Assembly: GCF_003116135.1 (NCBI RefSeq)
Contig: NZ_PDOA01000004.1
Coordinates: 186,001-250,000 of the forward strand
Origin: Teichococcus aestuarii
GTDB lineage: Bacteria; Pseudomonadota; Alphaproteobacteria; Acetobacterales; Acetobacteraceae
DNA: 64,000 nucleotides
Reading direction: 5' to 3'
Below are positions 1,496 to 5,856 of this stretch, in pieces. The notes beneath the pieces are model-generated. The model searched no databases, was not told the DNA's origin, and worked only from the letters and a program-made list of their open reading frames with translations. The first letter of the stretch is position 1. Each line of letters starts with the position of its first letter. The position numbers were made by a program, and so were the translations under genes.

Positions 1496-2404
1496 TCATC
1501 CGCCCAGCACCCGCACCGCCAGCGCCGCGGCCGAGGCACGGTTCTCGACGCCGAGCTTGGTGAACACCGTCTCCAGATGCTTGTTCACCGTGCGCGGGCT
1601 CATCACCAGGATCTCGGCGATGTCGCGGTTGCTCTTGCCGCGGCCGAGCCAGAGCAGCACCTCCGCCTCCCGCGCGGTGAGGCCGAGCCGCTCGCGCAGC
1701 AGCGTCTCCTCCGCGCGCGGGTCGGAGGCGGTGATGCGCAGCAGCAGCTCGTCGGGCGCGATCTGGCCGACATGGTGGAACTCGGCGCGCCGCCCGTCGG
1801 GCAGCGGCACGGGGGGCAGGCGGGGCGCCTCGCCGGGCGCGAGCGGCGCCCAGCCGGGCAGGCGCAGCCCGGCCGGCGCGTCCGCCTCCCCCGTGGCCCC
1901 GGCGGCGCGCAGCAGCCCCGCCGCCTGCGGCGTGGCCCAGAGCAGGATGCCCTCGCGGTCCACCGCCAGCAGGAAGCGCCCTGCGACATCGAGCGCCGCA
2001 TGGGCGCTGCGGGTGAGGCGCGCATTGGCGAGGTGGGCGCTGATGCGCGCCACCACCTCGTCCGGCACCACGGGCTTGATGACGTAGTCCACGCCCCCCG
2101 CGTCGAAGCCGCGCACCACATCCTCGCTCTCGGTCAGGCCGGTCATGAAGATGACGGGCACGGAGAGCAGCGTGGCGTTGCGCTTCATGCGGCGGCAGGC
2201 CTCGAAGCCGTCCATGCCGGGCATCACCGCGTCCATCAGCACGATGTCGGGGGTGATGCGCTCGATGACGGCCATGGCGGCGGCGGCGGATTGCGCCACC
2301 AGCACCATGTAGCCCGCGCCCTCCAGCGTGTCGTTCAGCAGGCCCAGCGTGCCGGGGGCGTCGTCCACCACCAGCACGATGTCGCGCCGTTCCACCAGGC
2401 TCAT
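1496..2404 (-). CDS. NarL/LuxR-family response regulator with central PAS-like region
   Basis: 302-residue response regulator. Residues 8-125 are a receiver domain (acidic pocket VVDDA at 12-16, phospho-acceptor D58 in LMDAVMPG, K110 in VIKPV). Residues 140-230 look like a degenerate PAS module (FLLAVDREGILLWATPQAA). Residues 238-300 are a LuxR/NarL helix-turn-helix with LTAREAEVLLWLGRGKSNRDI and SPRTVNKHLETVFTKLGV. The ATG overlaps the stop of the upstream kinase gene, so the two are translationally coupled and are very likely cognate. It is expected to bind DNA as a dimer. The 7-2-7 palindrome between the kinase gene and urtA is the obvious candidate site (inference). Confidence 0.93.
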   Translation of the reverse strand: MSLVERRDIVLVVDDAPGTLGLLNDTLEGAGYMVLVAQSAAAAMAVIERITPDIVLMDAVMPGMDGFEACRRMKRNATLLSVPVIFMTGLTESEDVVRGFDAGGVDYVIKPVVPDEVVARISAHLANARLTRSAHAALDVAGRFLLAVDREGILLWATPQAAGLLRAAGATGEADAPAGLRLPGWAPLAPGEAPRLPPVPLPDGRRAEFHHVGQIAPDELLLRITASDPRAEETLLRERLGLTAREAEVLLWLGRGKSNRDIAEILVMSPRTVNKHLETVFTKLGVENRASAAALAVRVLGG

Positions 2405-5400: not shown

Positions 5401-5856
5401 GCCGAGCCAGAGCGGCACGCCGAAGAAGCTCTCCAGCATGTCCGCCAGGATCACCGCCTCGATGCCGAAGAAGATGAAGGTGAAGCTGGCATAGATCAGC
5501 GAAGTGATGGTGGAGCCGATATAGCCGAAGCCGGCGCCACGGGTCAGCAGGTCGATATCCACCCCCGCCCGCGCCGCGTTCAGGCAGATGGGCAGGCTGG
5601 CCACGAAGATGAGCGCCGAGACGAAGAGGATGGCGGCGACGCTGTTGGTGAAGCCATAGGCGACGGTCAGCGCCCCGCCGATCGCCTCCAGCGCCAGGAA
5701 GGAGATGGAGCCCAGCGCCGTGTTGGCCACCCGGAAGGCCGACCATTTGCGCGCGCTGACCGCGGTGAAGCGCAGCGCGTAGTCCTCCATCGTCTCGTCG
5801 GCGACCCAGCGGTTGTAGTCGCGCCGGATGCGCAGGATGCGCTGGCGGGTGGCCAT
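2401..5856 (-). CDS. NCS1-type transporter fused to hybrid sensor histidine kinase
   Basis: 1151-residue fusion. Residues 40-480 resemble an NCS1 (nucleobase/cation symporter-1, purine-cytosine permease) fold with about 12 membrane segments and the family-like LTRGAGFGYIGSTITSL loop. Residues 497-534 are a cysteine cluster (C497, C500, C512, C520, C523, C524, C530, C534) suggestive of a metal site. Two further membrane segments (about 562-584 and 600-620) and a coiled linker (640-665) lead to HisKA (H675 in ISHELRSPL), HATPase (N-box NLLSNAIKF, DTGIGIAEADLARIFEPF, GVGLGLTITK), and a receiver (DDD at 916-918, D960, K1014). The C-terminus is a nine-residue repeat. Start MATRQRILRI is chosen because the frame upstream is low-complexity and promoter-like. 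It heads the regulator-urease operon and is divergent from urtA, so urea or a related amide is the likely signal (inference). Uncharacterised to my knowledge. Confidence 0.92.
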   Translation of the reverse strand: MATRQRILRIRRDYNRWVADETMEDYALRFTAVSARKWSAFRVANTALGSISFLALEAIGGALTVAYGFTNSVAAILFVSALIFVASLPICLNAARAGVDIDLLTRGAGFGYIGSTITSLIYASFTFIFFGIEAVILADMLESFFGVPLWLGYLASAVVVVPLVTHGITFISRVQTWTQPVWLVLNVLPLIALLVAHPDWLEGWTHYAGEQGRAGFDLLAFGAAASVLFALITQTGEQVDYIRFLPPRDTQRPWVWWAALLAGGPGWIAFDVLKLLAGSALAYAALQAGLSATQAVQPAEMYRLAFGALIASPGVALAVTAAFVALSQIKINVTNAYAGSLAWSNFFSRLTHSHPGRVVWLVFNIAVALLLMELGVYNTIEQVLFVYSNVAAAWMGALVADLAVNKPLGLSPSGIEFKRAHLYDVNPVGVGSMALSVLASFLAYYGVLGAGPQAFATFIAFGTAFAAAPAIAWATGGRYYLARKPRAAWAARPALQCVICEHAFEPRDMAYCPVYTGPICSLCCTLDARCGDGCKPHARLSAQIMTPLRAALPEGVMRALTTPVGSFMVVFLAFVATISLVFLGIRAQTPGSPHLDTAFWKAFFVLAVIGGIVAWTLVLARQSRLVAQEETRRQTSLLMSEIRAHKRTDAALQKAKEVAERANQAKSRYVIGISHELRSPLNAILGYAQLLERDPAIPERRRDGVRTIRRSGEHLAALIEGLLDISKIEAGRIELYRDEVRLPEFLDQIVQMLRLQAEAKSIAFAFDAPERMPEVVHTDERRLRQILINLLSNAIKFTRAGGVTLRLRFRSEVAEFAVIDTGIGIAEADLARIFEPFQRGENSHAPSTPGVGLGLTITKTLTEVMGGEISVRSTLGEGSTFRVRLLLSGKVGAPVLPERRVTGRAGARRLDVLVADDDPAHRALIADLLAPLGFTVRLAADGAECLRLAEDRAPDLFLLDIAMPGMTGWELARRLREEALQEAPIIMVSANALELGPPPGRRDGTRHHDDVLPKPLSIPALLEKVGVLLGITWTFAEAEPPPAPPAGAAARLTPAQAANLRQLAAIGYVGGIRERLDALEAECPEAAPAIAVLRGHVSEYRLDAFLAALPPEAAFPEPSPEAAHRELSPEATRQGPSPEADPPKPRPEDAE
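2411..2531. repeat. 27-bp tandem repeat at 3' end of the kinase gene
   Basis: Four full 27-bp units (starting 2411, 2438, 2465, 2492) and a partial fifth share the opening GCCTCCGGCGATG or close variants. On the coding (minus) strand they encode a nine-residue repeat with the pattern PEAxxxxxS, four full copies plus PEDAE, right up to the stop codon. Unit length is a multiple of three, so copy number can vary without changing frame. Confidence 0.9.

What the first reader, a model, noticed from the sequence alone, without database searches (positions are those of the whole stretch)
2401..5856. Nucleobase-type transporter fused to a hybrid histidine kinase inside a urea gene cluster
The sequence shows an NCS1-like membrane domain of about 440 residues, an eight-cysteine cluster, two extra helices and a complete HisKA-HATPase-receiver module in one 1151-residue chain. 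It is translationally coupled to a NarL-type regulator and cotranscribed with urease, opposite urtABCDE. Transporter-kinase fusions are known for CbrA (an SLC5-like transporter), but I know of no characterised NCS1-kinase sensor. The inference is a transceptor that reads urea or an allantoin-like precursor by the transporter fold.
Basis: partly seen in the sequence, partly recalled or inferred. Interest (0 to 1): 0.78.

Follow-up and report, generated by a model that had tools for sequence, protein, structure and literature searches.

The report
Transporter-shaped sensor for urea and amides
A bacterial signalling protein uses a membrane domain shaped like a nucleobase transporter, probably to sense urea or similar small amides and to switch on the genes that import and break them down; it belongs to a widespread family whose membrane part the standard protein-family library does not name.

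Summary
Window 2401-5856(-) encodes 1151 residues: transporter-like domain, eight cysteines, two helices, HisKA, HATPase, receiver. An ATGA overlap joins it to a LuxR-type regulator, then ureD/ureA; urtABCDE lies opposite. Pfam sees no NCS1 domain, but an AlphaFold model has CodB and Mhp1 as its five best PDB matches, and profile comparison with NCS1 proteins gives 99%. The fusion recurs across Pseudomonadota. Of 71 surveyed fused loci, 66 have amide or urea genes nearby: 42 formamidase/amidase, 24 urease or true Urt. The urea reading fits this clade; the family as a whole is amide/urea; allantoin is unsupported. New here: a 16-bp palindrome (TACG-N8-CGTA; window 5950-5965) between kinase and urtA in 88 of 115 divergent regions (shuffles: mean 0.26), the likely regulator site. 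Kinase-less relatives lie beside urease, formamidase or amidase in 15 of 18 loci examined, urtA in none, suggesting an unrecognised amide/urea permease class. Six pocket residues are the same in all 64 amide- and urea-linked sensors compared; neighbouring positions vary. One nucleobase-stacking aromatic is leucine; a lysine probably fills CodB's sodium site. Ligand, signalling direction, regulator binding and transport are inferred, not shown.

The parts
2401..5856 (-). NCS1-like hybrid histidine kinase gene (1151 aa)
4402..5856 (-). residues 1-485: transporter-like membrane domain, NCS1/LeuT-type fold
   Evidence: AlphaFold model of residues 1-640, pLDDT 81.4, pTM 0.82; Foldseek CodB/Mhp1; hhalign over residues 18-462
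4255..4368 (-). residues 497-534: eight-cysteine segment, metal site inferred
   Evidence: residues 488-640 searched alone in 249 genomes gave 36 strong hits, all in genes that also match the membrane domain, and 11 weak ones not examined
3940..4170 (-). residues 563-639: two extra helices leading into the kinase
3664..3861 (-). HisKA, residues 666-731, with conserved H675
3196..3525 (-). HATPase_c, residues 778-887
2785..3123 (-). receiver domain, residues 912-1024, with conserved D960 and K1014
1496..2404 (-). response regulator, receiver + LuxR/GerE helix-turn-helix; ATGA overlap with the kinase gene
   Evidence: a member of this family is in the fetched stretch of 143 of 153 loci
610..1464 (-). 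ureD (start codon chosen by me)
   Evidence: tblastn matches at the same place in relatives; a member of the UreD neighbour cluster hits Pfam UreD; NCBIfam gave no hit for the window copy
262..564 (-). ureA, urease gamma
   Evidence: NCBIfam PRK13241, over cut-off
5950..5965 (.). TACGTCATTTGACGTA palindrome, candidate binding site of the regulator, 77 bases short of the urtA start and 93 short of the kinase start
6043..7290 (+). urtA, urea ABC substrate-binding protein
   Evidence: TIGR03407, over cut-off
7319..8899 (+). urtB (ORF start; HEAT-repeat N-terminal part)
   Evidence: TIGR03409, over cut-off; HEAT_2
8896..9996 (+). urtC
   Evidence: tblastn family; a family member hits TIGR03408
9993..10730 (+). 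urtD (start approximate)
   Evidence: tblastn family; matches the annotated UrtD of a Klebsiella plasmid
10734..11426 (+). urtE
   Evidence: tblastn family; matches the annotated UrtE of that plasmid

Best explanation
It is a two-component sensor whose input domain is a remote NCS1-type transporter fold. The domain binds a small carboxamide (urea here, formamide or another short amide in most relatives) in the central pocket of the fold. The bound state is passed through the cytosolic cysteine segment and two extra helices to HisKA. The kinase and its receiver then phosphorylate the co-encoded LuxR-type regulator. The regulator binds the TACG-N8-CGTA palindrome between the two operons and switches on urtABCDE on one side and kinase-regulator-ureDA on the other. 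SHOWN by sequence or computation: the domain order, conserved catalytic residues, NCS1-like predicted fold, linkage to amide/urea genes, and the conserved palindrome. INFERRED: the ligand, the direction of signalling, the binding of the regulator to the palindrome, the cytosolic side of the cysteine segment, and whether the domain still transports.
For: Fold: Foldseek's top five PDB chains are CodB (TMt 0.79) and Mhp1; hhalign 99.1%, E 4e-19, residues 18-462; L121, 29% identical (E 1e-30), passes Pfam PF02133. Linkage: 66 of 71 surveyed fused loci have amide or urea genes, and 76 of 80 named-genome loci (4 of the 80 repeat surveyed loci). Palindrome: in 88 of 115 divergent intergenic regions, other spacings 0-2, shuffles mean 0.26, max 2; 84 of 111 distinct regions, and 60 of 86 after thinning of alike ones. 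Of 147 sites in 166 loci, 132 lie before urtA, fmdA or the sensor/transporter gene, 11 of them before a urtA whose sensor gene starts farther off. In 17 loci lacking this regulator no site lies before these genes. In the window's genome the full palindrome occurs once. Ligand: T126, E133, Q234, E237, Q238 and N332 are the same in all 39 amide-linked and 25 urea-linked sensors compared, K330 in 63 of 64. Amide and urea context change places 5 times on the tree (starred branches force at least 3). M. [quoted passage not shown]
Against: No ligand, transport or expression measurement exists. Pfam PF02133 hits none of 33 members. 27 of 115 intergenic regions lack an exact palindrome, among them urea-type L051, L063, L111, L112. 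Two loci without amide/urea genes are not explained by short sequence alone: L179 (22 kb) and L057 (about 5 kb before the kinase start). Positions next to the pocket do differ in make-up between contexts: residue 230 is Ser in 23 of 39 amide rows and Ala in 22 of 25 urea rows, and 233, 55, 129 and 334 also vary. The cysteine segment could be the true input. In CbrA a variant without the transporter domain still signals (PMC7918813, passage).
Confidence: 0.68

Rival explanations
1. A nucleobase, hydantoin or allantoin sensor: the NCS1 pocket keeps its classical ligand and announces a urea precursor.
For: The fold's known members mostly carry heterocycles (PMC9379551 and PMC13390362, passages); some plasmid relatives are annotated allantoin or cytosine permease.
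Against: The second stacking aromatic (Phe204 of CodB) aligns with L231; Trp108 aligns with F129, which is Leu in 6 of 25 urea-linked rows. The neighbour families that I named are amide and urea genes and general ones, no purine or allantoin genes. MetT shows that an NCS1 protein can carry a non-heterocyclic compound, metformin (passages).
Confidence: 0.07
2. The transporter fold is only an anchor; the real signal is metal, redox state or cell nitrogen status read by the cysteine segment.
For: The eight cysteines are conserved in >=97% of 67 full-length sequences, and the 36 strong hits of this segment are all in this family.
Against: The pocket residues are as conserved as the cysteines. In several kinase-less relatives the cysteines drop to four or five, or almost vanish in two from Arthrobacter, while the TM8 motif stays; others (L058, L250-L252, L268) keep all eight.
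Confidence: 0.15
3. A full transceptor: the same domain both imports urea/amide and signals, using uptake as the signal.
For: CbrA transports histidine and carries a kinase (PMC7918813, passage; PMC13022988, passages). Kinase-less relatives beside catabolic genes suggest that the scaffold can transport.
Against: Most fused loci have a separate ABC transporter for the same substrate class. All 64 fused sensors compared have E57 in TM1, where the kinase-less ones aligned have D56 and another residue at 57, so the two may differ in transport.
Confidence: 0.3

Closest known systems
CbrA and other SLC5/STAC histidine kinases (CrbS, RpuS)
   Same: A transporter-fold membrane domain fused to a histidine kinase; CrbS is a hybrid with a LuxR-type partner acting through an inverted repeat (passages; RpuS from an abstract).
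   Different: SLC5 domain with 13 helices and a STAC linker, here NCS1-like with a cysteine segment and two extra helices. CrbR's ACTU repeat differs in sequence from TACG-N8-CGTA.
Ks-Amt5 ammonium sensor kinase
   Same: A nitrogen-compound transporter domain fused to a histidine kinase (PMC5764959, abstract; passages about it in PMC12918730).
   Different: Amt domain and ammonium ligand, in an anammox bacterium; no urea or amide gene link in what I read.
CodB / Mhp1 (NCS1 transporters)
   Same: Best structural matches; profile homology to a set that includes E. coli CodB.
   Different: No kinase; the sodium-site threonines T278/T279 align with K330/I331 and Phe204 with Leu.
MetT, NCS1 metformin transporter
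   Same: A remote NCS1 branch carrying a linear nitrogen compound (passages).
   Different: A plain transporter; I did not compare its sequence.
Methylophilus fmdCABDEF system
   Same: Amide/urea uptake genes with formamidase, induced by formamide and urea (passage); neighbours of this family include FmdA and FmdB.
   Different: The passage names a putative positive regulator, not an NCS1-kinase; I did not examine that genome.

Membership tests
NCS1 transporters (Pfam PF02133) | match to the Pfam model over its cut-off | tested here: not met
   0 of 33 members at E<=1; window protein no hit at E<=1; PF02133 search of the own genome 0 matches
NCS1 transporters (Pfam PF02133) | LeuT-type fold closest to CodB/Mhp1 | tested here: met
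   AlphaFold model and Foldseek; a predicted model, not a structure
NCS1 transporters (Pfam PF02133) | profile homology to NCS1 proteins | tested here: met
   hhalign 99.1%, E 4e-19; bridging protein L121
NCS1 transporters (Pfam PF02133) | two aromatic residues sandwiching the base | tested here: not met
   F129 mostly kept, the second is L231; by sequence alignment, not superposition
NCS1 transporters (Pfam PF02133) | Na2 threonines in TM8 | tested here: not met
   K330/I331 in the ungapped MAFFT alignment; hhalign puts a 3-residue gap there instead
SLC5/STAC histidine kinases | SLC5 (SSF) transporter domain | tested here: not met
   no Pfam SSF hit; SLC5 chains rank below all five NCS1 chains
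SLC5/STAC histidine kinases | STAC domain between transporter and kinase | tested here: inconclusive
   no named Pfam domain in the linker; I did not check that a STAC model is in the library
hybrid histidine kinases | HisKA, HATPase and receiver with catalytic residues | tested here: met
urea/amide sensors | ligand-dependent kinase activity | not testable with these tools
   no binding or expression data

The most novel reading that the evidence does not exclude
The membrane domain defines an unrecognised NCS1-related subfamily for urea and short-chain amides with two uses: kinase-less members are bacterial urea/formamide/acetamide permeases that stand in for the ABC transporter, and kinase-fused members, such as this one, are its signalling form. 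The sodium site is replaced by lysine, so coupling would differ from CodB.
Probability: 0.55. Interest if true: 0.82.

Novelty: new variant of a known kind. Interest (0 to 1): 0.74.

Why it matters
The transporter-kinase fusions that I found described are SLC5 or Amt types; this would add a third fold. It is common: 52 of 398 genomes sampled from the window's phylum match at E below 1e-100, the window's own included. Sensor and kinase-less forms share the main pocket residues, so the step from carrier to receptor can be tested directly. If the kinase-less form is a permease, it names a urea/amide carrier class seen here beside urease, formamidase or amidase genes in two phyla (Pseudomonadota and, once, Actinomycetota) and now annotated allantoin permease, cytosine permease or hypothetical.

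Tried and rejected
Pfam and PDB sequence searches with the window protein alone gave no transporter hit; a profile search of the PDB gave only a weak match of the cysteine segment to a zinc protein, E 1. The Pfam scan of 33 members gave scattered weak matches (best FAM210A/B-like, E 1.6e-4, 3 members), set aside because they disagree with each other and with the fold. Allantoin/nucleobase sensing: see rivals. A mis-fused ORF was rejected by recurrence. Identity with the CrbR site was rejected by sequence. A sigma-70 promoter scan of 5800-6100 found nothing. Residues that separate urea from amide context: the best conserved pocket positions do not; residue 230 leans (Ser in 23 of 39 amide, Ala in 22 of 25 urea) and 55, 129, 233, 334 vary; none changes in all five urea clades. 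Note 7 says 'pocket identical', which is too strong. Literature: nine searches aimed at the question (lists capped) and one for CodB showed no NCS1-kinase. Closest are PMC13296017 (passages), which lists a hybrid kinase and a LuxR regulator with a second urtABCDE operon without noting a transporter fold, and PMC13209695 (passages), which suggests that such a urtABCDE takes up formamide.

Rows dropped or chosen: the 73 surveyed loci (L048-L120) hold 71 fused ones and two with only a kinase-less protein (L060, L061), which I leave out of the fused counts. A second G002 fragment, the G334 fragment and ten weaker matches were not surveyed; L121 and L122 were fetched but not counted. The tree has 86 rows chosen by me: the window, 60 of the 73 surveyed loci, 15 of 80 named-genome loci (picked mostly to add urea-type rows) and 10 kinase-less proteins; L058 is counted as amide and L124 as urea although both have mixed neighbours; L057 is unlabelled. 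One search used 39 amide and 25 urea rows (window included). Of 530 plasmid records I opened 9; two had no annotation and were read by tblastn. L272, opened but not counted among the 18 kinase-less loci, has formamidase and no site. The 80 named-genome loci are the best 80 of at least 594 relatives; four repeat surveyed loci. L262 and L263 were fetched and not examined. Several kinase-less loci are close kin of one another, and L245 has an in-frame stop.

Full report
WHAT IS THERE. The minus-strand ORF 2401-5856 encodes 1151 residues. Pfam finds HisKA, HATPase_c and a receiver, with H675, N789, N793, D960 and K1014 among the positions conserved in >=97% of 67 full-length sequences, the window's included. 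Before them lie a membrane domain that Pfam does not name, a conserved cysteine segment (C497, C500, C512, C520, C523, C524, C530, C534) and two helices. The stop codon overlaps the start of a receiver-LuxR regulator, and ureD starts 31 nt after that gene.

THE MEMBRANE DOMAIN. With the single sequence nothing matched, and none of 33 relatives scanned hits Pfam's NCS1 model. An AlphaFold model of residues 1-640 from 50 sequences has pLDDT 81.4 and pTM 0.82. Its five best PDB matches are CodB and Mhp1 chains; SLC5 and other LeuT-fold proteins rank lower. hhalign against ten NCS1 proteins, E. coli CodB among them, gives 99.1% over residues 18-462. A 29%-identical protein (L121) passes the Pfam cut-off and bridges the two. 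I call it a remote NCS1-related group, not a canonical member.

DISTRIBUTION. The first 640 residues match in 18 of 100 genomes of the window's family and in 63 of 398 of its phylum at E<=0.001; 52 of these 398 have E below 1e-100; both counts include the window's own genome. Residues 488-640 searched alone in 249 phylum genomes gave 36 strong hits, all in genes that also match the membrane domain, and 11 weak ones (E 5e-5 or worse) that I did not examine. The segment looks private to this family.

CONTEXT. I fetched up to 20 kb round the strong matches (one fragment left out). Of 71 fused loci, 39 have formamidase or amidase plus a more distant Urt-like transporter (window UrtA identity 36-41%), 3 more have formamidase/amidase without it (one with urease too), 24 have urease and/or true Urt, and 5 have neither. 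Of those 5, L059, L064 and L120 are contigs of about 5 kb and L073 ends just before the kinase start, but L057 has about 5 kb there and shows nothing. Of 80 named-genome loci 76 have such genes; of the 4 without, L179 has 22 kb in view. A regulator of the same family is in the fetched stretch of 143 of 153 loci. The distant Urt proteins also pass NCBIfam's urea models, so present annotation hides the amide link. On a quick tree of 86 chosen rows the amide/urea label changes 5 times, and the window lies in a starred nine-row urea clade.

THE PALINDROME. Between kinase and urtA lies TACGTCATTTGACGTA at 5950-5965. TACG-N8-CGTA occurs in 88 of 115 divergent intergenic regions; other spacings occur 0-2 times and shuffles give a mean of 0.26 and a maximum of 2. 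Some regions repeat each other: 84 of 111 distinct ones, and 60 of 86 after thinning, carry it. 41 different 16-mers keep the frame. Over 166 loci, 132 of 147 sites lie before urtA, fmdA or a sensor/transporter gene, 11 of them before a urtA whose sensor gene starts farther off; 15 lie elsewhere. In 17 loci without this regulator no site lies before these genes; one stray occurs about 8 kb away in L266. The window's genome has 7 places with the loose pattern (107 for the pattern read backwards), only one being the full palindrome. In this compact arrangement one site would serve both operons. Binding is inferred.

KINASE-LESS RELATIVES. A 535-aa relative (L060) led to others. Of 18 such loci examined, 15 have urease, formamidase or aliphatic amidase in view and none has urtA; several are close kin, and L245 has an in-frame stop. 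Examples: upstream of ureEFGJDABC on an Acinetobacter lwoffii plasmid, divergent from fmdA in Moraxella osloensis, directly before aliphatic amidase in Arthrobacter sp. U41, and formamidase / NCS1-kinase / regulator / kinase-less protein / amidase in Methylovirgula. The three misses are L249, Streptomyces angustmyceticus and Arthrobacter NicSoilB11. Those aligned keep the pocket residues; some keep eight cysteines, several only four or five, and the two from Arthrobacter almost none. I infer a permease; it is untested.

POCKET. From the CodB paper (passages) and alignments: Gln105 aligns with T126, Trp108 with F129, Phe204 with L231, Asn280 with N332 and the sodium-site Thr278/Thr279 with K330/I331. 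hhalign puts a three-residue gap at that last place, so K330 in the sodium site is likely but not certain. E133 falls four residues after the tryptophan position, where I place Mhp1's Gln121 (Gln121 from the passage; its distance from Mhp1's tryptophan is recalled). T126, E133, Q234, E237, Q238 and N332 are the same in all 39 amide and 25 urea rows, and K330 in 63 of 64; but residue 230 leans by context (Ser in 23 of 39 amide, Ala in 22 of 25 urea), F129 is Leu in 6 of 25 urea rows, and 55, 233 and 334 vary. A shared core pocket fits a sensor of the carboxamide group; it cannot say which amide. NCS1 proteins can carry non-heterocyclic nitrogen compounds: MetT carries metformin (passages).

COMPARISON AND VERDICT. 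It works like the transporter-kinases CbrA and Ks-Amt5 (abstract), with another fold and linker. It is not an SLC5/STAC kinase by the features tested, and not a canonical NCS1 member by Pfam. The searches of the held library, which lacks most subscription journals, showed no description of an NCS1-kinase (listed in Tried and rejected). I rate it a new variant of a known kind.

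Noticed in passing
L060, L061, L244-L252, L058 (12290-13957), L264-L269: Kinase-less relatives beside urease, formamidase or amidase in 15 of 18 loci examined, urtA in none; some are annotated allantoin permease or hypothetical.
   Followed up: partly
L076, L117, L253: NCS1-like kinases of about 880 aa, without a receiver in the two read in full (L076, L117), beside formamidase and without the LuxR partner or the palindrome.
   Followed up: partly
L270 (Klebsiella quasipneumoniae plasmid): The fused sensor with urtABCDE, an annotated formamidase and a near-palindromic site lies on an IncFIB/IncFII plasmid; 342 of the 530 plasmid records matched by L060 are Klebsiella, of which I opened this one.
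   Followed up: partly
L267 and L269 (Arthrobacter plasmids): Their kinase-less members have lost nearly all the cysteines of the segment while keeping the TM8 motif.
   Followed up: no
window kinase residue 57; L058, L060, L061, L244, L246-L252: TM1 has E57 in all 64 fused sensors compared but D56 with a different residue 57 in the kinase-less proteins aligned; a possible sensor/transporter switch.
   Followed up: no
window 7319-8899: UrtB carries an N-terminal HEAT-repeat part before the permease domain.
   Followed up: no
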